Shown piece after piece: positions 41,926-52,133 of a stretch of 64,000 bases of DNA (position 1 is the first letter of the stretch; the number at the start of each line of letters is the position of its first letter). The notes beneath the pieces are model-generated. The model saw only the letters and a list, made by a program, of their open reading frames with translations. It searched no databases and was not told the DNA's origin. The position numbers and the translations under genes are program-made. Source of the stretch: Sandarakinorhabdus sp. AAP62 (GTDB lineage: Bacteria; Pseudomonadota; Alphaproteobacteria; Sphingomonadales; Sphingomonadaceae); assembly GCF_000331225.1 (NCBI RefSeq), contig NZ_ANFY01000008.1:1-64000 (forward strand), in the 5' to 3' direction.

Positions 41926-42672
41926 ATGCGACCCGACACCCCCTCCGCCGGCCCGGCGGTGGCTGCCCCCGTGCTGGCAGCCACCGTGCCGGCAGCCCCA
42001 GTCCTTTCGGCAGTTGGGCTGACGCGCGCCGTGCCGCTGGCCGGGGGCGGGCGGCGGACCTTGTTTTCGGGCGTCAGCATCGCGCTGGCGCCGGGCGAAG
42101 TGGTGGCGATTACCGGCGAATCCGGGGTGGGCAAATCGACCCTGTTGAACGTGATTGCCGGGCTGGACATGGCCGATGCCGGGGAGGTGCTGATCGGCGG
42201 CAGGAATGTCGCCGGGCTTGCCGAGCCGGCGCGGGCGGCGTTGCGGGCGACGGCGCTGGGTTTCGTGTTCCAGGCGTTCCATGTGCTGCCGCACCTTTCC
42301 TTGGCGCGCAACGTGGCGCTCCCTTGCCTGCTGGCCGGCATGAATGCCGCCGATGCGCTGGCCCGGGCGGAAGCGACTCTGGCCGAAGTCGGCCTGGCCG
42401 GACGCGGGCCGGACTGGCCGGCGGTATTGTCGGGCGGGGAATTGCAGCGCGTCGCCATTGCCCGTGCGCTGGTGCATCGCCCCGGCCTGGTGCTGGCCGA
42501 TGAGCCGACCGGCAATCTCGATCCCGAAACGGCGGGGCGCATTCTCCATCTGCTGCTGGCGCAGGCGCGTGATCGCGGCGCGGCCGTGCTGATCGTTACC
42601 CACAGCGAGATGGTGGCGGCTGCGGCGACCCGCGTGCTGCGCCTGTCGGCCGGCGGGCTTTTGCCCAGCTGA
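41926..42672 (+). CDS. ABC transporter ATP-binding protein (LolD/AttE-like)
   Basis: A 248-residue ABC ATPase of the MacB/LolD type. Walker A GESGVGKST, Q-loop FVFQAFHVLPHL, signature LSGGELQRVAIARAL and Walker B VLADEPTGNLD are intact. An Ala/Pro-rich N-terminal 25 residues precede the fold. Its stop overlaps the permease start by one base, and a lipocalin-like gene follows, so the trio matches the attEFGH type of lipoprotein-handling exporter with the two permeases merged into one. Confidence 0.92.
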   Translation: MRPDTPSAGPAVAAPVLAATVPAAPVLSAVGLTRAVPLAGGGRRTLFSGVSIALAPGEVVAITGESGVGKSTLLNVIAGLDMADAGEVLIGGRNVAGLAEPARAALRATALGFVFQAFHVLPHLSLARNVALPCLLAGMNAADALARAEATLAEVGLAGRGPDWPAVLSGGELQRVAIARALVHRPGLVLADEPTGNLDPETAGRILHLLLAQARDRGAAVLIVTHSEMVAAAATRVLRLSAGGLLPS

Positions 42673-45212
42673 TGCAGCATTGGCAGGCAACGGGCTGGCT
42701 GATCGCCGGAGAATGGCGGGCGCATCCGGTGCGGATTGGCCTTGCCGTGCTGGCGATTGCCGTGGGCGTGGCGCTGGGTTTTGCCGTGCATATGGTCAAC
42801 AGCGCGGCGCTGGCCAGTTTCGGCCGGGCGGTGGCCAGCGTGCAGGGTCGGGCCGATCTGGCGGTGCGGGCCCGATCGGCAGCGGGGCTGGATGAAGCGC
42901 TGTATCCCCGGCTGGCGCGGCTGCCCGAGGTGCAGGCGATCAGCCCGGTGGTGGAACTGCCGGCCAGCTGGGGCAGACTGGCGCGACCGGGTTCGCAGGC
43001 TAGAGGCGGACGTTTCACGCTGATCGGGCTTGATCCGCTGCGGGCGCTGCGCGTGACGCCGGGGCTGGTCGGCCTGTCGCGGGCGGGCCAGTCCGGCGTG
43101 GGCAGCCGGCCGACATGGCAAGGCGATGCGGTGTGGCTGTCCCCGGCCTTGCAGCGCGCCACCGGGCTGCAGCCGGGCGACGCGTTCACGCTGACAGCGG
43201 CGGGCCGGCAGGCACGCTTCACCGTGATGGGCCGGCTGGCCTCGGCCGGCGACGAAGCGCAGATGGCGGTGATCGACATTTCGGAGGCACAGTGGCGGTT
43301 TGGCCAGGTGGGCCGCCTGCAACGGCTTGATCTGAAGCTGGCGGAAGGTGCCGGCGCCCGCCTGGCCGTACAGGCAGCGCTGCCGGCTGATGCCGTGCTG
43401 GCAACGCCCGAAGCCGAAGCCAGCCGGGCCGACGCACTGAGCCGCGCCTATCGCGTGAACCTGGGCATGCTGGCGCTGGTGGCGTTGCTCACCGGCGGGT
43501 TCCTGGTGTGGTCGGCGCAGGCGCTCAGCGTGGCGCGGCGGCGGCCGCAGTTCGCGCTGCTTGGCGTGCTGGGCCTGCCGCGGGCCGGGCTGGTGCGGCA
43601 GTTGCTGGCGGAAGGCCTGCTGCTCGGGCTGGTCGGCGCTGCGCTGGGCGTGGCGCTGGGCCATGGGCTGGCGGCGCTGGTGGTTGATCGTTTTGGCGGC
43701 GATCTGGGCGGCGGCTATTTCAATCGGGCGCAGACCCGGCTGGGCTTTGATCTGGCCGCAGCGTTCGGTTTTGGCGCGCTGGGGCTGGTCACGGCGCTGG
43801 CCGGCAGCATTGCCCCGGCGCTGGCGGCGGCGCGCACGGCCCCGGCGCAGGCGTTGAAGGGCCTGGGCGATGTGCCTGATCCGGCCACCGCACCGCGCGC
43901 CTGGCCCAGCCTGGCCCTGCTTGCGGCGGGTGGCCTGGCGGCACTGGGGCCGGCACTTTGGGGCCTGCCGCTGCTGGGTTACGCCGCGATGGCGTTGCTG
44001 CTGGCCGGCGGCGTGGCGTTGATGCCGGCGCTGGCGCGGCTGCTGCTGGCGCCTTTGGCGCGGCGGGGGAGCGCCTGGTTGCCGCTCGATCTGGCGGTGC
44101 GCCGGCTGTGGGGTGTGCCGCAGGCGGCGGCGCTGGCACTTTCCGGCATCGTCGCCTCCACCGCGCTGATGGTGGCGATGGCGGTGATGGTCGCCAGTTT
44201 CCGCCAGAGCGTTGATGATTGGCTGATCGCGGTGCTGCCATCAGACCTGTATCTGCATCTGGAAGCCGCCGAAGCTGGCGGGCTGGCCCCGGCCGATCAG
44301 GCCCGGCTGGCGCAGGTGCCCGGGCTGGAAAGCGTGCGGTTCCAGCGGGTGATTTCGGTGCGGATCGCGTCTGATCAGCCGGCCGTGGCGGTGATGGCGC
44401 AGAGCGGCGACCTGACCATGCCACTGACCGCCGCGGCCGATGCAGCGGCGCCTGCCGGTACCACGCGCGCCCTGATTTCCGAGCCGCTGGCCTGGCTTTA
44501 TGGCTGGCGGGTGGGCGAGGTGCACAGCCTGGTGATCGGTGGCCAGCAGCGGCGCCTGTATGTGGCCGGCACCTGGCGCGATTATGCCCGGCAGTGGGGC
44601 GCGATCATGCTGCCGCTGGCGGATTATCGCCGCCTGACCGGCGATGTCACCGCAACCGAGGCGGCTTTCGAACTGAAGGCCGCCGCGGATGCCCAGACGG
44701 TTCAAGCCGCCTTGCAAGCCGCGCTGCCGGCCGCCGTGCAGGGCCAGGCGCAATTCGGCCGGCCAGCGGAGATGCGGGCCGTGGCGCTGACCATTTTCGA
44801 TCGCAGTTTCGCCGTCACCTATGCGCTGGAAGCCATCGCCATCATCATCGGCCTGATCGGCGTGGCGACCAGCTTTTCGGCGCAGGTGCTGGCGCGCATG
44901 CGCGAATTCGGCATGTTGCGCCATGTTGGCGTGCCGCGCCGGCAGATCCTGCAGATGCTGGGGCTGGAAGGGGCGGGCCTCGGCCTGATCGGGGCGCTTT
45001 CGGGCCTGTCGTTGGGGTTGGTGATGGCGCTGGTGCTGGTGCGCGTCGTCAACCCGCAGAGCTTTCACTGGACGATGGATCTGGCGCTGCCGTGGCCGCT
45101 GCTGGCCGGGCTGGTGGCGGCGCTGGTGATCTGTGCCGGTGGCACGGCGGTGATCGCCGGGCGGCGCGCGCTGGGCGGGCAGGCGCTGTTGGCGGTGCGG
45201 GCGGATTGGTGA
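42672..45212 (+). CDS. FtsX-type ABC transporter permease
   Basis: An 846-residue permease with two FtsX-like modules. One N-terminal helix (IGLAVLAIAVGVALGFAVHM), a large periplasmic region, then hydrophobic clusters at about residues 265-480 and 715-840, the last including ALEAIAIIIGLIGVATSFSA. This is the double-FtsX layout of YbbP/AttFG proteins that extract lipids or lipoproteins from the inner membrane rather than transport across it. Coupled to the ATPase upstream and to the lipocalin gene downstream (TGATG). Confidence 0.9.
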   Translation: MQHWQATGWLIAGEWRAHPVRIGLAVLAIAVGVALGFAVHMVNSAALASFGRAVASVQGRADLAVRARSAAGLDEALYPRLARLPEVQAISPVVELPASWGRLARPGSQARGGRFTLIGLDPLRALRVTPGLVGLSRAGQSGVGSRPTWQGDAVWLSPALQRATGLQPGDAFTLTAAGRQARFTVMGRLASAGDEAQMAVIDISEAQWRFGQVGRLQRLDLKLAEGAGARLAVQAALPADAVLATPEAEASRADALSRAYRVNLGMLALVALLTGGFLVWSAQALSVARRRPQFALLGVLGLPRAGLVRQLLAEGLLLGLVGAALGVALGHGLAALVVDRFGGDLGGGYFNRAQTRLGFDLAAAFGFGALGLVTALAGSIAPALAAARTAPAQALKGLGDVPDPATAPRAWPSLALLAAGGLAALGPALWGLPLLGYAAMALLLAGGVALMPALARLLLAPLARRGSAWLPLDLAVRRLWGVPQAAALALSGIVASTALMVAMAVMVASFRQSVDDWLIAVLPSDLYLHLEAAEAGGLAPADQARLAQVPGLESVRFQRVISVRIASDQPAVAVMAQSGDLTMPLTAAADAAAPAGTTRALISEPLAWLYGWRVGEVHSLVIGGQQRRLYVAGTWRDYARQWGAIMLPLADYRRLTGDVTATEAAFELKAAADAQTVQAALQAALPAAVQGQAQFGRPAEMRAVALTIFDRSFAVTYALEAIAIIIGLIGVATSFSAQVLARMREFGMLRHVGVPRRQILQMLGLEGAGLGLIGALSGLSLGLVMALVLVRVVNPQSFHWTMDLALPWPLLAGLVAALVICAGGTAVIAGRRALGGQALLAVRADW

Positions 45213-46243
45213 TGCGGCGTCTGCTCCTGTTACTGGCGCCCTTGCTGCTGGCAGCGACGTTCGCGCCGGTGCGGCCGGGCGTGCCGATGCGCTTTCCGGC
45301 CGATCATGGCGCCCACCCCGAATTCCGCACCGAGTGGTGGTATGTGACGGGCTGGCTGAACACGGCGCAGGGCAGGCAGGGATTTCAGATCACCTTCTTC
45401 CGCACGCGGCCGGATATCGACACGCCGAACCCTTCCGCCTTCGTGCCGCGCCAGGTGATCTTTGCGCATGCGGCGCTCGCCGATCCGGCACGCGGCAAGC
45501 TGCGCCACGCCGCCCGCATTGCCCGCGCCGGCTTTGGCCTGGCCAATGCGCGCGTGGGCGACATGGATGTGACGCTGGACGATTGGCGGCTGTGGCGGGG
45601 CAGGGACGGCCGGCTGCACGCGAAATTGGCCGGGGATGGTTTCGCCTTCGATCTGGCCTTCACGCCGACGCAAGGCGTGATCCTGCAAGGGCAGGGCGGT
45701 TTCAGCCGCAAGGGGCCGGGGGCCGGGGAGGCGAGCCATTATTACAGCTGGCCGCATCTCGCCGTTGCAGGCCGGGTGAACGGCGCGGCGGTGACGGGCA
45801 CGGCCTGGCTCGACCGCGAATGGTCATCGACGCTGATGAACCCCAAGGCGGTGGGCTGGGACTGGCTGGGCCTCAATATGGACGATGGCAGCGCCGTCAC
45901 CCTGTTCCGCATGCGCGACAAGGCAGGCAGCGCGCTGTGGGCCGGCGGCAGCCATCGCAGCAAGGCCGGCGTGCTGACCGTGCTGAAGCCCGATGATGTG
46001 CGCTGGCAGGCCGGCGGCTGGTGGCAATCCCCGCGCAGCAAGGCGCGCTGGCCGGTGCGGCCCACGGTGGCGCTGCGGGTGGGCGCGGCGTGGCGCGAGT
46101 TGCCCGTGGTGCCGATGATGGCGGATCAGGAGCTGGACAGCCGGATGAGCGGCGGGCCGGTCTATTGGGAAGGCGCCGTGACGGTGCCGGGCGGGCGCGG
46201 CTATCTGGAATTGACGGGCTATGCTTCTCCCTTGCGGATGTGA
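45212..46243 (+). CDS. AttH-like secreted lipocalin-domain protein
   Basis: A 343-residue exported protein with a signal peptide (MRRLLLLLAPLLLAATFAP). FRTEWWYVTGWLNTAQGRQG, SHYYSWPHLAVAGRV and GTAWLDREWSSTLM are characteristic of the AttH / carotenoid-1,2-hydratase-related double-lipocalin family. In this operon context an AttH-like substrate-binding role is more likely than carotenoid hydration. The start overlaps the permease stop by one base; the long upstream in-frame extension is only a shadow of the permease. Confidence 0.85.
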   Translation: MRRLLLLLAPLLLAATFAPVRPGVPMRFPADHGAHPEFRTEWWYVTGWLNTAQGRQGFQITFFRTRPDIDTPNPSAFVPRQVIFAHAALADPARGKLRHAARIARAGFGLANARVGDMDVTLDDWRLWRGRDGRLHAKLAGDGFAFDLAFTPTQGVILQGQGGFSRKGPGAGEASHYYSWPHLAVAGRVNGAAVTGTAWLDREWSSTLMNPKAVGWDWLGLNMDDGSAVTLFRMRDKAGSALWAGGSHRSKAGVLTVLKPDDVRWQAGGWWQSPRSKARWPVRPTVALRVGAAWRELPVVPMMADQELDSRMSGGPVYWEGAVTVPGGRGYLELTGYASPLRM

Positions 46244-46297
46244 GGGGCAAGAAGCTAACAGCGCAGCCAGGCAGGGGTGCTGAGATTGGGGACACAT

Positions 46298-47533
46298 GTG
46301 ACTGACACCGGCCTGATCGCGCCTGATTTTGCCCCCGCCGCCCCGCGCGGCCTGTGCACCGATTGCGGCGTGTCGCGCACGGCAACGCCCAATGATTGCG
46401 GCACCGCCTGCCAGTTCATCAAGCCCGATTATGCCGCGATGGAGGCCCAGGTGCATGGCCGCGCCCGCGATGAATCGCGCCCGGATGAACTCTTCTTCGG
46501 CCCGTTCCAGCGCATGGCCAAGGCCCGGCTGAAGCAGCCGCTGGAAGGCGCGCAATGGACCGGCATCACCAGCCGGCTGGGCCAGCGCCTGCTGGAAACG
46601 GGCGCGGTGGACGCCATCCTGACCATGGCACCCGATCCGGACGACAAGTGGAAGCCGCGCCCGGTGCTGGTGACCAAGCCCGAAGCCATGGCCGCCGTGC
46701 GCGGCATGCGCATGGGTTATGCGCCGCTGCTGGCGCTGCTGGAACCGGCGCGCGCGGCGGGCTTCAAGCGCATCGGCATCATCGGCATCCCCTGCCAGAT
46801 CCATGCGCTGAGGCGGCTGGAGGCCAAGCTGGGCTTCGAGCGTATCTACGTCATCGGCACGCCGTGCAGCGACAACACGACGACCAGCAATTTCCACGAG
46901 TTCCTGAGCCTGCTCTCCGACAAGCCCGACAGCATCACCTACCTGGAATTCAAGGCCGATTATCATGTCGAACTGCGCTTCGACGATGGCCGCCGCAAGG
47001 ATATCCCCTTCCTGATGCTGCCGCTGTCAGACCTGCGGCCGGACTTCTTCCCGCTCACCTGCCGCACCTGCGTGGACTACACCAACAGCCTGGCAGACAT
47101 CACGGTGGGCTACATGGGCGGCACCGGCGAACAATGGCTGCTCGTCCGCAACGATCGCGGCGCCGAATTGCTCGGCCTGCTCGGTGACGAAGTGGCGCTG
47201 ACCGAACCCGATGACAACGGCAAACCCGATGGCTCCAAGCGCGCCGGGCCGGTGAAGGGCTTCCTCGCCAACACCGAACGCGCCGCCGGCGGCCTCCCCT
47301 TGCGCCGCATGCCGAAATTCATCCGGCCGCTGGTGGGCAGGCTGATGCCGCTCGTCGGCCCCAAGGGCAAGGAATTCGCCCGCACCCGCGTCGAGATGAA
47401 AGCCATCGAAACCATCCTCCACCTGCGCCGCGAAGCACCCGGCATGATGAAGAACATGATCCCGCCGCACGTGTGGACCCTGGTGGCGCGCTATGGGCTG
47501 GTGCCGGGGAAGGGCGAGACGAAGGAGGGGTGA
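46298..47533 (+). CDS. bciB: 3,8-divinyl (proto)chlorophyllide a 8-vinyl reductase, BciB type
   Basis: A 411-residue FrhB-family iron-sulfur flavoprotein. It follows cyanobacterial BciB along its length: Cys20, Cys23, Cys34, Cys38 in GLCTDCG...CGTACQF, HGRARDESRPDELFFGPFQ, KQPLEGAQWTGITSRL, IIGIPCQIHALRRLE, YVIGTPCSDN, LTCRTCVDYTNSLADITVGY. BciB reduces the C8 vinyl group of divinyl chlorophyllides with ferredoxin. The GTG at 46298 has GGGGA 6 bases upstream; GTG 46277 is an alternative. The LPOR gene lies 710 bases further on the other strand, so both are (bacterio)chlorophyll genes. Confidence 0.87.
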   Translation: MTDTGLIAPDFAPAAPRGLCTDCGVSRTATPNDCGTACQFIKPDYAAMEAQVHGRARDESRPDELFFGPFQRMAKARLKQPLEGAQWTGITSRLGQRLLETGAVDAILTMAPDPDDKWKPRPVLVTKPEAMAAVRGMRMGYAPLLALLEPARAAGFKRIGIIGIPCQIHALRRLEAKLGFERIYVIGTPCSDNTTTSNFHEFLSLLSDKPDSITYLEFKADYHVELRFDDGRRKDIPFLMLPLSDLRPDFFPLTCRTCVDYTNSLADITVGYMGGTGEQWLLVRNDRGAELLGLLGDEVALTEPDDNGKPDGSKRAGPVKGFLANTERAAGGLPLRRMPKFIRPLVGRLMPLVGPKGKEFARTRVEMKAIETILHLRREAPGMMKNMIPPHVWTLVARYGLVPGKGETKEG

Positions 47534-47553
47534 GGCCCCTCTGGCAATCGGCG

Positions 47554-47589
47554 CCGGACTAGACTATATTCGGTCTCTATTCAGTCCGG
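47554..47589. promoter_or_regulatory. Candidate operator of the toxin-antitoxin operon
   Basis: Just before the antitoxin gene, CCGGACT (47554-47560) and AGTCCGG (47583-47589) form a 7-bp inverted repeat, and AGAC (47561-47564) with GTCT (47572-47575) form a smaller one inside. This AT-rich segment (ACTATATTCGGTCTCTATTC) probably contains the promoter and binds the antitoxin for autoregulation, as is usual for Phd/YefM systems. Confidence 0.5.
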
Positions 47590-47599
47590 GAGCTTCTCC

Positions 47600-47878
47600 A
47601 TGCGCTATTCCACGCAGGTGCGTCCGGTCAGCTACCTGAAGGCCAATGCCGCGGACGTGCTGACCGATCTCAACGAGCGCCGCGAGCCGGTGCTGATCAC
47701 CCAGAACGGGCAGGCGAAGGCCGTCCTGGTCGATGTCGTCTCCTTCGAGGAAACCCAGGAAACTCTGGCGCTGCTGAAAATTCTCGCTCTCGGCCAGCGG
47801 GAAATCGAGGCCGGCGAAACGGTCGACGCCCGCACCGCCATCGCCGCCCTCAAGGATCGCCTCGCGCCGTCCGCATGA
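47600..47878 (+). CDS. Phd/YefM-family antitoxin
   Basis: A 92-residue antitoxin. RYSTQVRPVSYLKANAADVL and REPVLITQNGQAKAVLVDVV follow the Phd/YefM DNA-binding domain; the C-terminal helices (LALGQREIEAGETVDA) would wrap the toxin. GGAG precedes the ATG. It overlaps the toxin gene by 4 bases. The pair sits between bciB and LPOR and may stabilise that segment. Confidence 0.92.
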   Translation: MRYSTQVRPVSYLKANAADVLTDLNERREPVLITQNGQAKAVLVDVVSFEETQETLALLKILALGQREIEAGETVDARTAIAALKDRLAPSA

Positions 47879-48216
47879 CGACCCGCTACACGGTCCAGCT
47901 GACCCGCAGCGCCGAACGCGACCTCGCCACGATCGCCGGTTATCTGGCGCAATCGGCCTCACCCGCCATCGCCGCCGCCTTCCTCGACACCATGTTGGAT
48001 CGTATCGCTGAACTGGAACAATTCCCCGAACGCGGCGCCATCCCGCGCGAACTCGAAGCGCTGGGCATCACCAGCTTCCGCCAACTCAGCGCCAAACCCT
48101 GGCGCATCATCTACCGTATCAGCGAAACCACGGTAACCATCCTGCTGATCGCTGACGGACGCCGCGACATGCAGACCCTGCTGGAACAGCGACTGCTGCG
48201 GTCGACGACATTGTAG
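47875..48216 (+). CDS. ParE/RelE-family toxin
   Basis: A 113-residue RelE/ParE-superfamily toxin: QLTRSAERDLATIAGYLAQS, LEQFPERGAIPREL, FRQLSAKPWRIIYRISETTV and ILLIADGRRDMQTLL, which is the usual fold order. ParE members poison gyrase and RelE members cleave ribosomal mRNA; sequence alone leaves the target open, with the ParE side somewhat favoured. Convergent with LPOR, whose stop is 28 bases away. Confidence 0.92.
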   Translation: MTTRYTVQLTRSAERDLATIAGYLAQSASPAIAAAFLDTMLDRIAELEQFPERGAIPRELEALGITSFRQLSAKPWRIIYRISETTVTILLIADGRRDMQTLLEQRLLRSTTL

Positions 48217-48243
48217 GGGACGTCAGGCTTGCCTTCGATCCGG

Positions 48244-49215
48244 TCAGGCCAGCCCCACCGCCTTCATCGTCAAATCCCACAGCCGTTCGTTGCGCGCTTC
48301 GTTGGTGCCGCGCGTCGACAAGGGCTGGGCAAACGGCATGCGGCCTTCTTTCTGGCGGTTGCCCCAGCTCCAGTGGACGCCGGATTGGCTGGCGAAGGCG
48401 GGGTCGGCGATGACTTGCGCCGTGCGTTCGCCGGCGAGGGGTTGGGAGACGTAGCCCTTGGTGATGTTTTTCTGGAACCAGGGGAAGATTTTCTGGAAGG
48501 CGGGTGGGGTGTGGCGGAAGAGGAGGGTTTCGGCGACGCAGCCGGGGTAGAGGGTGTTGAAGACGATGCCGGTTGAGCCCCAGCGTTTCTGGAACTCGCG
48601 GCTCATGATCATGCAGGCGAGTTTCGAATCCTTGTAGGCCTTGCCGGGCTTGAACGGTTTGCCGTCGATCATGGCGATGGGGGCCTGGAAGCCGGCTGCG
48701 AGGCCGGCGAGGTCGCCGAGGTCAGCCGGGGCGGGGATGGGGATCTTGCCGCCGAATTCCTCGCTGTTGGCCGTCACCGTGCCGAGCGTGATCAGGCGTG
48801 GCGGCGAGGCGAGGCGGCCCTTGGCCTGCTTCAGATCGTCGATGAGGAGGTGGGCGAGGAGGAAGTGGCCGAAATAATTGGTGGCAACGCTGATTTCATA
48901 GCCTTGCGCGCTGCGCATCGGCGCTTCGAGGCGGGGCAGGTAGACGGCGGCGGTCAAGAGCAGCGCGTCGAGGGGGAGGCCGGTGGCGTGGAATTCGTCC
49001 GCGAACTTGCGCACGCTGGCCTGATCGCCCAGATCGATGGGCATGATGCGGCGGCTTTCGGCCGGGATGCCGATTTCCGTCGCGGCGGCTTCGGCCTTGG
49101 CGAGATCGCGGCAGGCCATGATGACGAGCCAGCCGCGCGTCGCCAGCGATCTGGCGGCCCACAGGCCAACGCCCGACGAGGCGCCGGTAATGATCACCAC
49201 TGGTTGGATGGACAT
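48244..49215 (-). CDS. por: Light-dependent protochlorophyllide oxidoreductase (LPOR)
   Basis: A 323-residue SDR enzyme that reduces protochlorophyllide to chlorophyllide using light and [17 protein letters not shown] (cofactor), NAAVYLP-like [48 protein letters not shown] (Tyr194, Lys198), [11 protein letters not shown] (Cys226), [20 protein letters not shown] and [13 protein letters not shown] are LPOR-specific and match cyanobacterial enzymes at the same residue numbers. Start [11 protein letters not shown] is at normal length. LPOR is typical of cyanobacteria and plants and known in only some aerobic anoxygenic phototrophs, so transfer is likely. Confidence 0.93.
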
Positions 49216-49288
49216 GAAGTCTCCGTAATGCGCGGCCCTGTTCGCCGCGCTCTTTGACTCAAACCACTGCGCACGGCAAGTTTGTCGC

Positions 49289-50371
49289 ATGCAGTCGCTT
49301 CCCGATTTCCTTGCCCGTGTAAAGCCGCCGATCACACCGGCGTTGGTGGTGCGGCGCGCCGTGATGATGGCGAATCTGGCGGCCATGCAGGCGGCTTGCG
49401 CCGAACGGGGCGTGCGGCTGCGTGCGCATGGCAAGATGCACAAGTGCAGCGCGCTGGGCCGGCTGCAGATCGAGATGGGCGCGGTGGGCCTGTGCTGCCA
49501 GACGGTGGGCGAGGCTGAAACCTATGTGCATGCCGGGATCGGCGATGTGCTGGTGACTGCGCCGGTGCCGGCCTGGGGCTGGCTGCGGCTGGCGGCGCTG
49601 GCCCGCACGGCGCGCGTGGGTGCGGTGATGGACAGTGCAGCCCAGATTGCCGAGGCGGCCACGGCGGCACTGGCGGCGGGCGTGGTGCTGGATGCCCATG
49701 TCGACGTAGATCCCGGCATGGCGCGGGCCGGGGTGGCGCCTGCTGGTGCTGTGGCGCTGGCCGCGGCGATCGCCGGGCAAAAGGGCCTGCGCTATGCCGG
49801 CATCCAGGCCTATTGCGGTCATCATCAGCATCTGTCGCCGGCGGAACGGGCGGCGGCCCATGCCGAGTGGACAGCGCGATTGGTCACCGTGGTGGCCGAA
49901 CTGCGCGCCGCCGGACTGGCTCCCGAACAGATCACCGGTGGCGGCACTGGCACGGCGGCCATGGATCTGGCTGCGGGCGTTTACACGGAGCTTCAGCCCG
50001 GCAGTTATGCGGTGATGGACGTGGAATATGGCGATCTGGGTGATCTGCCGTTTGCACCGGCGCTGTTTCTGGCGGCATCCGTGGTTTCGGCCAATCATGC
50101 CAGCCACGTGACCTGCGATGCCGGGCACAAGGCGCTGCATCCCAATGGGCCGATGAGCCGGGTCGTGCAGCCGGCGGGCAGCGTTTACAAGCCCATGGGC
50201 GATGAGCATGGCGCGATCGTGCCGCCCAGCGGGGTGGGCGAAGGCGATCTGGTCTGGCTGCAGCCCGGCCATGTCGATCCGACGGTGGCGCTGCACGATG
50301 CCTTCTTTGTGGCGGAAGAGGATGGCCGGCTGGAACGTTGGCCCATCGATGCGCGGCGGGCCAGCCTTTGA
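49289..50371 (+). CDS. DSD1-family PLP enzyme (D-threonine aldolase-like)
   Basis: A 360-residue fold-type III PLP enzyme with alanine-racemase-like N terminus. [10 protein letters not shown] carries the PLP lysine (Lys49). The C-terminal metal site MGDEHGAI and [16 protein letters not shown] is typical of D-threonine aldolases and D-serine dehydratases. It cleaves or dehydrates a D-hydroxy-amino acid; the precise substrate is unknown. Divergent from LPOR, with 73 bases between. Its stop overlaps the mtnP start (TTGA). Confidence 0.88.
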
Positions 50372-51243
50372 ACTGGAAACTGGGTATCATCGGTGGTTCC
50401 GGCCTCTATGCCATCGATGGGCTGGAGGATGCGCACTGGGTGCAGGTGGAGAGCCCGTGGGGCACGCCGTCTGATGCCATTCTCACCGGCCGCATTGCCG
50501 GCATCGAGGTGTGTTTTCTGCCGCGCCACGGCCGCGGCCACCGCATCCCGCCGCATCAGCTCAATGTGCGTGCCAATATCGACGCGCTGAAGCGGCTGGG
50601 CTGCACCGATGTGCTGGCGGTGTCGGCGGTGGGCTCGTTGAATGCCGCCATGGCACCGGGCGAATTCGTGGTGGTGGACCAGTTCATCGACCGCACCAAG
50701 GGGCGGCCCTCGACCTTCTTCGAGACTGGCCTGGTCGCGCATGTGCCGATGGCCGATCCGACCTGCCCGCGGCTTTCGGCCCTGGCGGCGGACGCAGTGG
50801 CGGCGGCGGGTGGCACGGTGCATCGCGGGGCGACTTACCTGGCGATGGAAGGCCCGGCCTTTTCCACACGCGCCGAAAGCCGGCTGCACCAGGCGTGGGG
50901 CTGTGATCTGGTGGGCATGACGGCGATGCCGGAAGCCAGGTTGGCACGCGAGGCGGAGCTGCCCTATGCGCTGGTCGCCATGGTGACGGATTTTGATTGC
51001 TGGCACGATGGCGCCGATGTTGATGTGACCGACATCCTGGCCGTGATGCACGGCAATGCGGCGCTGGCGCGGGCCATGATCATGACATTGTGCGCCCGCC
51101 TGCCAGCGATGCGTGCGCCCAGCCTGATCGATACGGTGCTGGATAGCGCCATCATGACCGCGCCCGATGCGCGCGACCCGGCGATGTTGGCCCGGAACAG
51201 CGCCATCCTGTCGCGCTGGCTGGCAAAAGGGCGCACTGGCTGA
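50368..51243 (+). CDS. mtnP: S-methyl-5'-thioadenosine phosphorylase
   Basis: A 291-residue nucleoside phosphorylase. LGIIGGSGLYAIDGLED, PRHGRGHRIPPHQLNVRANI, YLAMEGPAFSTRAESRLH and VGMTAMPEARLAREAELPYA are signatures of MTAP. It splits methylthioadenosine into adenine and methylthioribose-1-phosphate for methionine salvage. A TTG start overlapping the previous stop (TTGA) is the only in-frame start giving the family N terminus. Confidence 0.93.
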   Translation: MNWKLGIIGGSGLYAIDGLEDAHWVQVESPWGTPSDAILTGRIAGIEVCFLPRHGRGHRIPPHQLNVRANIDALKRLGCTDVLAVSAVGSLNAAMAPGEFVVVDQFIDRTKGRPSTFFETGLVAHVPMADPTCPRLSALAADAVAAAGGTVHRGATYLAMEGPAFSTRAESRLHQAWGCDLVGMTAMPEARLAREAELPYALVAMVTDFDCWHDGADVDVTDILAVMHGNAALARAMIMTLCARLPAMRAPSLIDTVLDSAIMTAPDARDPAMLARNSAILSRWLAKGRTG

Positions 51244-51269: not shown

Positions 51270-52133
51270 ATGGATCGCATCAGCATCGCCACGCCGGCCG
51301 GCACGGTTTCCGCCCTGCAGGCCGGGCCACGGGATTTTCTGGGCCCGCGCCTGCATTTTGCCCATGCCACCGGCATGAACGCGCAACTGTATGAACCCGT
51401 GCTGGCGCCGCTGGCCGACCGGTTCGCCATCACCATCAGCGATGCACGCGGCCATGGCCATAGCGGCCTTGATCGTGATCCGGCCCACCTGACCAGCTGG
51501 GAGGATTTTGCCCACGATCTGCTGCGCCTGATCGACGTGATCGACCGTGGCAGCGCCTGGGTTCTGGCCGGCCATTCGATGGGGGCCACGGTGTCGTTGC
51601 TGGCCGCCGCCATGCGCCCGGAACGGGTGGCCGGGCTGGTGCTGCTCGATCCGCCGATGCTGCCGTTCGATGTGGCGGCAACGGTGCGGGCCGGCGCCAG
51701 CATCCCCAATCCGATGGCCGATCAGGCGGCGCGGCGGCGCGGCATGTTCCCCAGCCGGGCCGAGGCGCGGGCGGCCTATCAGGGCCGCGGCGTGTTCCGC
51801 ACCTGGAGCGATGCCCATCTGGATGCCTATCTGGCCGGTGGGCTGATCGACACTGATGAAGGCGTGGAACTGGCCTGCCAGCCGGCGTTCGAGGCGGCGA
51901 CCTTCCGCGCGGTGTCGCCCAATGTCGAGCCGGCGCTGGCCCGCCTGCAACGGCCGTTCGTCCTGCTGGCCGGGGCGGAAGGCTCGACCGTGCGTGATGC
52001 CGAACTGGCGGTGTTCGCAGCGCACCCGTTGTGCCGCAGTGCGACGCGCCTGCCCGGTACCACGCATTTCCTGCCGCTGGAGCGCCCCGAAGCGGTGCGC
52101 GCCGCGATCAGTTCTTTTTCTGCGGCACCGTGA
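51270..52133 (+). CDS. Alpha/beta hydrolase
   Basis: A 287-residue hydrolase with HFAHATGMNAQLYEP (oxyanion region), ISDARGHGHSG, AGHSMGATVSLL (nucleophile Ser), and PGTTHFLPLERPE (His). The substrate is not identifiable. No signal peptide, so cytoplasmic. Its last 26 bases overlap the 3' end of the convergent lptA gene. Confidence 0.88.
   Translation: MDRISIATPAGTVSALQAGPRDFLGPRLHFAHATGMNAQLYEPVLAPLADRFAITISDARGHGHSGLDRDPAHLTSWEDFAHDLLRLIDVIDRGSAWVLAGHSMGATVSLLAAAMRPERVAGLVLLDPPMLPFDVAATVRAGASIPNPMADQAARRRGMFPSRAEARAAYQGRGVFRTWSDAHLDAYLAGGLIDTDEGVELACQPAFEAATFRAVSPNVEPALARLQRPFVLLAGAEGSTVRDAELAVFAAHPLCRSATRLPGTTHFLPLERPEAVRAAISSFSAAP

What the first reader, a model, noticed from the sequence alone, without database searches (positions are those of the whole stretch)
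46298..49215. BciB and light-dependent protochlorophyllide reductase side by side in a sphingomonad-like genome
Seen: a protein following BciB end to end and, 710 bases on, one with every LPOR-specific motif (Tyr194, Lys198, Cys226, the KIPIPAP and HWSWGNRQK segments). Known: LPOR is typical of oxygenic phototrophs and has been reported from a limited set of aerobic anoxygenic phototrophs; purple bacteria normally rely on the oxygen-sensitive DPOR (BchLNB) and usually on BciA. Inferred: two cyanobacterial-type enzymes acting on neighbouring intermediates form an oxygen-tolerant bypass module acquired by transfer. Their convergent orientation and position outside any visible photosynthesis cluster are unusual.
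Basis: partly seen in the sequence, partly recalled or inferred. Interest (0 to 1): 0.85.

Follow-up and report, generated by a model that had tools for sequence, protein, structure and literature searches.

The report
Light-driven and 8-vinyl chlorophyll-pathway gene pair
A freshwater light-harvesting bacterium carries, side by side, two genes for making bacteriochlorophyll, one of them for an enzyme driven by light; both kinds were already known in such bacteria, and what is new is that the neighbouring pair recurs in about half of the genomes of its genus although the two genes have separate histories.

Summary
Window 46298-47533 (+) is bciB-like and 48244-49215 (-) is a true light-dependent protochlorophyllide reductase (LPOR), convergent and 710 bp apart. 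The genome is almost certainly Sandarakinorhabdus sp. AAP62, a published aerobic anoxygenic phototroph, with DPOR (bchL, N, B) in a photosynthesis cluster on another contig. LPORs of such bacteria were described and assayed in 2020; BciB is reviewed as present in some purple bacteria. The 'cyanobacterial bypass module' is not supported: LPOR lies in the known proteobacterial LPOR clade (64% identical to the best cyanobacterial row held), but this BciB lies in an alpha/beta-proteobacterial clade (39%), and other genomes carry one gene without the other. BciB alternates with BciA in its family (of 26 pufM genomes: 8 BciB, 15 BciA, 0 both, 3 neither). New, as far as my searches show: the convergent pair recurs in 13 of 24 genomes of the genus (LPOR cut by the contig edge in one), with a gap of 6 to 2478 bp holding different genes. 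Most likely LPOR is a light-driven, oxygen-tolerant backup for DPOR and BciB the resident 8-vinyl reductase.

The parts
46298..47533 (+). bciB-like gene (8-vinyl chlorophyllide/protochlorophyllide reductase), GTG start, 411 aa; an in-frame GTG at 46277 is also possible
   Evidence: FrhB_FdhB domains; alignment; tree; HCAR 5dqr 359.4 bits
47600..47878 (+). Phd/YefM-type antitoxin ORF in the gap between bciB and LPOR
   Evidence: 34.4 bits, cut-off 20.8; 60.6 bits, cut-off 29.8; same pair at the same place in G525
47875..48216 (+). ParE/RelE-type toxin ORF of the same pair
   Evidence: ParE_toxin 60.4 bits, cut-off 23; RelE_StbE below its cut-off (22 against 27.9)
48244..49215 (-). LPOR gene (light-dependent NADPH:protochlorophyllide oxidoreductase), ATG start, 323 aa
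   Evidence: TIGR01289 433 bits; tree
49253..49263 (.). TTTGACTCAAA near-palindrome upstream of the LPOR start; identical in two other genus genomes and TTTAAGTCAAA in a fourth; role unknown
42672..45212 (+). FtsX/MacB-type permease, flank on the bciB side, conserved in most members
45209..46243 (+). CrtC-type lipocalin protein, flank on the bciB side, conserved in most members
49289..50371 (+). alanine racemase/D-serine dehydratase-like gene, usual flank on the LPOR side (not found in UBA6157, G511, G521)
50338..51243 (+). nucleoside phosphorylase superfamily gene, flank on the LPOR side, conserved in most members
51270..52133 (+). alpha/beta hydrolase, flank on the LPOR side, conserved in most members

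Best explanation
The two genes are ordinary members of known families in an aerobic anoxygenic phototroph. LPOR uses light and NADPH to reduce protochlorophyllide to chlorophyllide, backing up the oxygen-sensitive DPOR (bchL, N, B) that the same genome keeps in its photosynthesis cluster. BciB reduces the 8-vinyl group, preferably of the chlorophyllide that LPOR or DPOR makes, and is the only dedicated 8-vinyl reductase found in the genome (no BciA was found; chlorophyllide reductase is the known fallback). The genes meet tail to tail at a locus conserved in much of the genus, are inherited together there, and are not an operon; the gap between their stop codons holds different genes in different members, here a toxin-antitoxin pair. 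Shown: family membership, DPOR and puf on another contig, no BciA by two searches, conserved locus, different relatives of the two proteins. Inferred: enzyme activities, backup role, absence of functional coupling.
For: LPOR score and solved relatives. One clade of LPORs from aerobic anoxygenic phototrophs, SH-aLRT 98, window with S. oryzae, G106 and G020 at 99 (quick tree). Purifying selection: dN/dS 0.10-0.22 (LPOR) and 0.12-0.13 (BciB) for the window against three genus members, 0.21 and 0.27 against UBA6157. Four DPOR/COR-type paralogues; bchL, bchB, bchN over curated cut-offs; pufM. BciB/BciA alternation: of 26 pufM genomes among 149, 8 BciB, 15 BciA, 3 neither, 0 both (Fisher p 1.06e-4, not corrected for kinship; three of the BciA genomes supplied the profile, and one BciB match, G072, has an in-frame TAG). 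No BciA in the window's genome by the profile or among its three PF13460 proteins. Conserved locus: convergent neighbours on one contig in 12 of the 18 genus genomes with LPOR over the cut-off, plus G526 where LPOR is cut by the contig edge. Both gene trees hold the same 11-member clade with the window. Literature: 10 of 11 putative LPORs of such bacteria active in at least one assay (PMC7947762 section read); BciA and BciB prefer 8-vinyl chlorophyllide (PMC4214422 passages).
Against: No activity is shown for these two proteins. Thr88 replaces an Asn kept in every other LPOR aligned, and two usual Cys are missing, so activity could be reduced; but E. dokdonensis LPOR also lacks both Cys, and PdLPOR, which I take to be that species' enzyme, was active in both assays. 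No experimentally characterised BciB was in the tree. BciB-like genes also occur in two class genomes without a pufM match (G246, 84% complete; G278, 99% complete, one contig), and a BciB fragment in G090 without pufM. In G515, G511 and G522 the two genes are not neighbours. In both genus trees an outside row falls inside the genus, so inheritance is not purely vertical.
Confidence: 0.85

Rival explanations
1. Co-acquired cyanobacterial module: LPOR and BciB were transferred together from cyanobacteria as an oxygen-tolerant bypass.
For: LPOR is of cyanobacterial ancestry (PMC7947762; consistent). The genes are neighbours, and both occur, not adjacent, in two Polynucleobacter-like beta MAGs.
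Against: BciB is 39% identical to the best cyanobacterial BciB held against 64% for LPOR, and sits in an alpha/beta clade on a long branch. 8 of 12 non-cyanobacterial LPOR genomes lack a BciB match, and 5 of the 8 family genomes with BciB lack LPOR. No cyanobacterial LPOR stretch held here, up to 10 kb each side, has a BciB match.
Confidence: 0.04
2. Functionally coupled pair: kept together by selection because LPOR makes 8-vinyl chlorophyllide that BciB takes over, with shared light- or oxygen-dependent expression.
For: Neighbourhood conserved in 13 genus genomes; the 18 genus genomes with LPOR over the cut-off all have BciB; four of seven AAP LPORs in PMC7947762 favoured divinyl protochlorophyllide, two favoured monovinyl, one neither (passages); BciB prefers 8-vinyl chlorophyllide.
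Against: Convergent, not co-transcribed; flanking genes of unrelated function are conserved too, so shared ancestry of the locus explains it. Genus genomes with BciB and no LPOR match exist (G514, G521), and the genes are apart in G515, G511 and G522. TGT-N12-ACA sites (PpsR-like, recalled motif) are no more frequent than chance (2 found, 4.49 expected) and none lies in the intergenic region before either gene; one lies about 380 bp before bciB inside the lipocalin ORF.
Confidence: 0.1
3. LPOR is decaying in this strain: Thr88, missing Cys and a toxin-antitoxin insertion next to it mark relaxed selection.
For: Thr88 is unique among the LPORs aligned.
Against: Intact ORF, dN/dS 0.10-0.22 within the genus, catalytic Tyr, Lys and Cys226 kept, insertion lies outside both genes. 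The missing Cys are shared by the genus members aligned and by E. dokdonensis.
Confidence: 0.06

Closest known systems
LPORs of aerobic anoxygenic phototrophs (Dinoroseobacter shibae, Erythrobacter/Porphyrobacter, Limnohabitans, Gemmatimonas; Chernomor et al. 2020, PMC7947762)
   Same: Same family over the curated cut-off, same clade, DPOR also present; the paper cites the Sandarakinorhabdus limnophila and S. cyanobacteriorum descriptions among its references for LPOR carriers shown to be phototrophs
   Different: Sequence differs at Leu87, Thr88 and Ala200; the paper's main text does not mention bciB
BciB 8-vinyl reductases (Synechocystis slr1923, Chloroherpeton thalassium) and plant HCAR (5dqr)
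   Same: FrhB_FdhB architecture, conserved Cys, found mostly with reaction-centre genes, alternates with BciA
   Different: Alpha/beta-proteobacterial subclade, 39% identical to the closest cyanobacterial BciB held; the two named enzymes themselves were not compared
Sandarakinorhabdus sp. AAP62 genome and photosynthesis cluster (PMC3587927)
   Same: 22 contigs, 3.13 Mb, photosynthesis cluster on a contig of about 550 kb: almost certainly this genome
   Different: The announcement does not mention LPOR or bciB

Membership tests
LPOR | Score over the curated TIGR01289 cut-off and not a general SDR | tested here: met
   433 against 331.35 bits; next family 100.7
LPOR | Catalytic Tyr and Lys (YxxxK) and Cys226 | tested here: met
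   Y194, K198, C226
LPOR | Four conserved Cys highlighted in PMC7947762 (not taken as defining, see evidence) | tested here: not met
   two of four kept, as I place them; Leu87 and Ala200 at the others. E. dokdonensis LPOR lacks the same two, and PdLPOR was active, so they do not define the family
LPOR | Falls with LPORs of aerobic anoxygenic phototrophs in a tree | tested here: met
   98 and 99 SH-aLRT; no general SDR was in that tree
LPOR | Light-dependent protochlorophyllide reduction | not testable with these tools
   -
BciB | FrhB/FdhB N and C domains with conserved Cys for Fe-S clusters | tested here: met
   seven Cys invariant in eight proteobacterial sequences; that they bind clusters is inferred
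BciB | Closer to HCAR/BciB than to F420 hydrogenase subunits | tested here: met
   359.4 against 91.5 bits; the same profile finds a match in 13 of 16 cyanobacterial genomes at E 2.1e-126 to 7.9e-117
BciB | Occurs with bacteriochlorophyll genes and alternates with BciA | tested here: met
   8 of 8 family genomes with a near-full-length match have pufM and lack BciA (G072's copy has an in-frame TAG); class-wide 7 of 9 have pufM
BciB | 8-vinyl reductase activity | not testable with these tools
   -
Operon or co-transferred module | Same strand and co-transcribable | tested here: not met
   convergent in all 13 same-contig cases
Operon or co-transferred module | Both genes closest to cyanobacterial donors | tested here: not met
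   (trees without outgroup)

The most novel reading that the evidence does not exclude
The convergent LPOR/bciB pair is a selected unit: in sunlit, oxygenated water LPOR supplies 8-vinyl chlorophyllide directly to BciB, and the tail-to-tail arrangement couples their expression, giving a linked light-dependent branch of bacteriochlorophyll synthesis in a purple bacterium.
Probability: 0.1. Interest if true: 0.5.

Novelty: new member of a known kind. Interest (0 to 1): 0.3.

Why it matters
It is a clean case for asking why aerobic anoxygenic phototrophs keep both DPOR and LPOR, in a genus with LPOR-bearing and LPOR-lacking members at the same locus. The BciA/BciB alternation in one family (15, 8, none with both) is a useful natural experiment on 8-vinyl reductases. 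It does not change the published picture of how LPOR reached these bacteria.

Tried and rejected
Joint transfer from cyanobacteria: rejected on the BciB tree and identities; that tree has no outgroup, no green bacteria, and puts the one gamma BciB (Thiodictyon) on the cyanobacterial side. Oxygen-tolerant module including BciB: rejected on its published cofactors. PpsR-type (TGT-N12-ACA, recalled) regulation: no excess over chance. LPOR as part of the photosynthesis cluster: none of 19 proteins from the C7 cluster region matched in the window; of these 19, six names come and pufM, the rest I assigned from the published gene order or left unnamed. Of ten cluster-region ORFs scanned three had no family at E 1e-30 and one was PspF, not a pigment gene. 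The BciA label rests on a motif I recalled, on 68% identity to a protein on an 860-kb Rhodobacter record annotated only as NAD(P)H-binding and on its occurrence; no curated family names it, PDB hits are weak, 3 of its 18 genomes lack pufM (G022, G033, G063), two matches hold one in-frame stop (G103, G121) and G041's is partial. The BciA search scored 14 of 26 first-look candidates in the window's genome; the PF13460 search there scored all 19. The named LPOR set is a capped list, best 80 of more. Rows left out of the LPOR tree: L071, L072, L074 (second copies), L146, L145, L150 and three rows under 280 aa; row L039 labelled cyanobacterial is a second copy of G106, and L136, a Gracilibacteria MAG, groups with cyanobacteria. 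All trees are quick ones. G526 counts as LPOR-less but holds a 184-residue LPOR piece at its contig edge. A class-wide cyanobacterial search could not be run. No structure was predicted. No supplements could be read, so which tested LPOR code of PMC7947762 is Sandarakinorhabdus is not established.
Full report
What is there. The window is bases 1-64000 of contig C8 of a 3,131,544-base, 22-contig genome. A bciB-like gene lies at 46298-47533 (+) and LPOR at 48244-49215 (-), convergent with 710 bases between them. LPOR scores 433 bits against the curated TIGR01289 cut-off of 331.35; the next family gives 100.7. The 7 distinct PDB sequences found at E up to 1e-20 are all protochlorophyllide oxidoreductases. 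The other protein has the FrhB_FdhB N and C domains, and a profile of its family finds 7-hydroxymethyl chlorophyll a reductase (5dqr) at 359.4 bits, F420 hydrogenase-type subunits at 91.5 and below.

Which organism. The nearest named LPOR is that of Sandarakinorhabdus oryzae, 91% identical. Contig C7 carries the cluster: four Oxidored_nitro proteins, bchC, bchI, bchL, bchH, bchB and bchN, each over the curated cut-off of at least one model, and pufM. So DPOR is complete and LPOR is an additional enzyme.

Sequence detail. Tyr194, Lys198 and Cys226 are kept. Of the four Cys highlighted in PMC7947762, as I place them, two are replaced (Leu87, Ala200) in the window, G106, G020 and S. oryzae, and both are also missing in Erythrobacter dokdonensis. 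Thr88, at the Asn of the NAA motif, occurs only in the window: of 89 aligned rows 84 have Asn, 3 Thr (all copies of the window sequence) and 2 a gap; some loci are in twice. Both genes are under purifying selection.

How common. Of 149 family genomes, 4 have LPOR over the cut-off, 8 have a near-full-length BciB match (G072's with an in-frame TAG) and one a fragment, 26 have pufM, and 18 match a BciA profile, 15 of them with pufM. Among the 26 pufM genomes: 8 BciB, 15 BciA, 3 neither (G003, G057, G101), none with both; Fisher p is 1.06e-4 without correction for kinship. One genus (g72) has BciB in one member and BciA in another. In 337 class genomes BciB is in 9, pufM in 22, LPOR in 1, the window's own; 7 of the 9 BciB genomes have pufM, G246 and G278 do not. 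BciB is therefore a regular alternative to BciA in this family, not an oddity.

Origin. In a quick tree of 81 LPOR rows those of aerobic anoxygenic phototrophs form one clade (98), the window with its genus (99), as published; one non-cyanobacterial MAG row (L136, Gracilibacteria) groups with cyanobacteria, and rows were drawn from a capped list. The best cyanobacterial LPOR held is 64% identical, the best cyanobacterial BciB 39%; the 18 alpha and 2 beta BciBs lie on one side of a long branch, 13 cyanobacterial and one gamma BciB on the other. This does not look like joint arrival from cyanobacteria. Of 12 non-cyanobacterial LPOR genomes searched whole, 4 have a BciB match and 8 do not.

The locus in the genus. 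Of 24 genus genomes, 18 have LPOR over the cut-off and 23 have BciB, two of these partial. On one contig the two are convergent neighbours in 12 of the 18, and in G526 with LPOR cut by the contig edge. The gap is 6 to 2478 bases: 6-9 in G527, G106, G516 and G526; 188 to 2478 in the other nine, holding a histidine kinase (G509), a penicillin-amidase family gene (G519), the same toxin-antitoxin pair (G525), ORFs without a Pfam match, or no ORF of 80 codons (G518). In G020, G517 and G529 both genes lie within 2 kb of contig ends on the facing side and adjacency is open; in G515, G511 and G522 they are apart. Permease and lipocalin genes flank bciB, and racemase-like, phosphorylase and hydrolase genes flank LPOR, in most members. 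This order was not found around bciB in G095, G001, G072, G030 or G113, nor around LPOR in G108, E. dokdonensis, Gemmatimonas, D. shibae, L081 or L083. In G521 the locus runs from bciB to the phosphorylase with neither LPOR nor the racemase-like gene. The two gene trees share the same 11-member clade with the window, but in each an outside row falls inside the genus (G030 for BciB, E. dokdonensis for LPOR). The pair is best read as an inherited neighbourhood with a tolerant gap between two convergent genes, not an operon.

Mechanism and prior art. From published work: 10 of 11 putative LPORs of such bacteria were active in at least one assay (PMC7947762, section read); of seven tested, four favoured divinyl protochlorophyllide, two monovinyl, one neither (passages); BciA and BciB prefer 8-vinyl chlorophyllide (PMC4214422 passages); BciB is FAD/[4Fe-4S], ferredoxin-dependent and found in some purple bacteria (PMC7242693 passages). 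So LPOR backs up DPOR in oxygen and light, and BciB finishes the vinyl reduction; these roles are inferred for this strain. My searches listed no paper on a linked bciB-LPOR pair; 'bciB' occurs 0 times in the main text of PMC7947762; supplements and subscription papers were not seen.

Noticed in passing
window 47600-48216; L264 6689-7305 (G525): The same Phd/ParE toxin-antitoxin pair sits in the bciB-LPOR gap in two genus members, while others hold unrelated genes or nothing there: a tolerant insertion slot.
   Followed up: yes
window LPOR residue 88: Thr replaces an Asn kept in every other LPOR aligned; effect unknown.
   Followed up: partly
window 49253-49263; L071, L072, L075: A conserved 11-base near-palindrome (TTTGAGTCAAA, TTTAAGTCAAA in G106) lies upstream of LPOR; no exact copy elsewhere in the window or in the photosynthesis-cluster stretches held.
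   Followed up: partly
L083, L084, L109 (beta MAGs, Polynucleobacter): In these beta-proteobacteria LPOR lies beside bchL in the photosynthesis cluster, convergent with it.
   Followed up: partly
L271 (G511) and L080 (Erythrobacter dokdonensis): E. dokdonensis LPOR groups with a genus member (99), suggesting LPOR exchange among sphingomonads.
   Followed up: no
G278 (L201), G090 (L046, L047): A BciB-like gene in a 99% complete genome without a pufM match, and a BciB fragment in another: remnants of lost phototrophy or another use.
   Followed up: no
L069 (Pseudanabaena sp. PCC 7367 plasmid), L068 (D. shibae pDSHI05): LPOR genes on plasmids, the Pseudanabaena one conjugative by typing, show a possible route for spread.
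   Followed up: no
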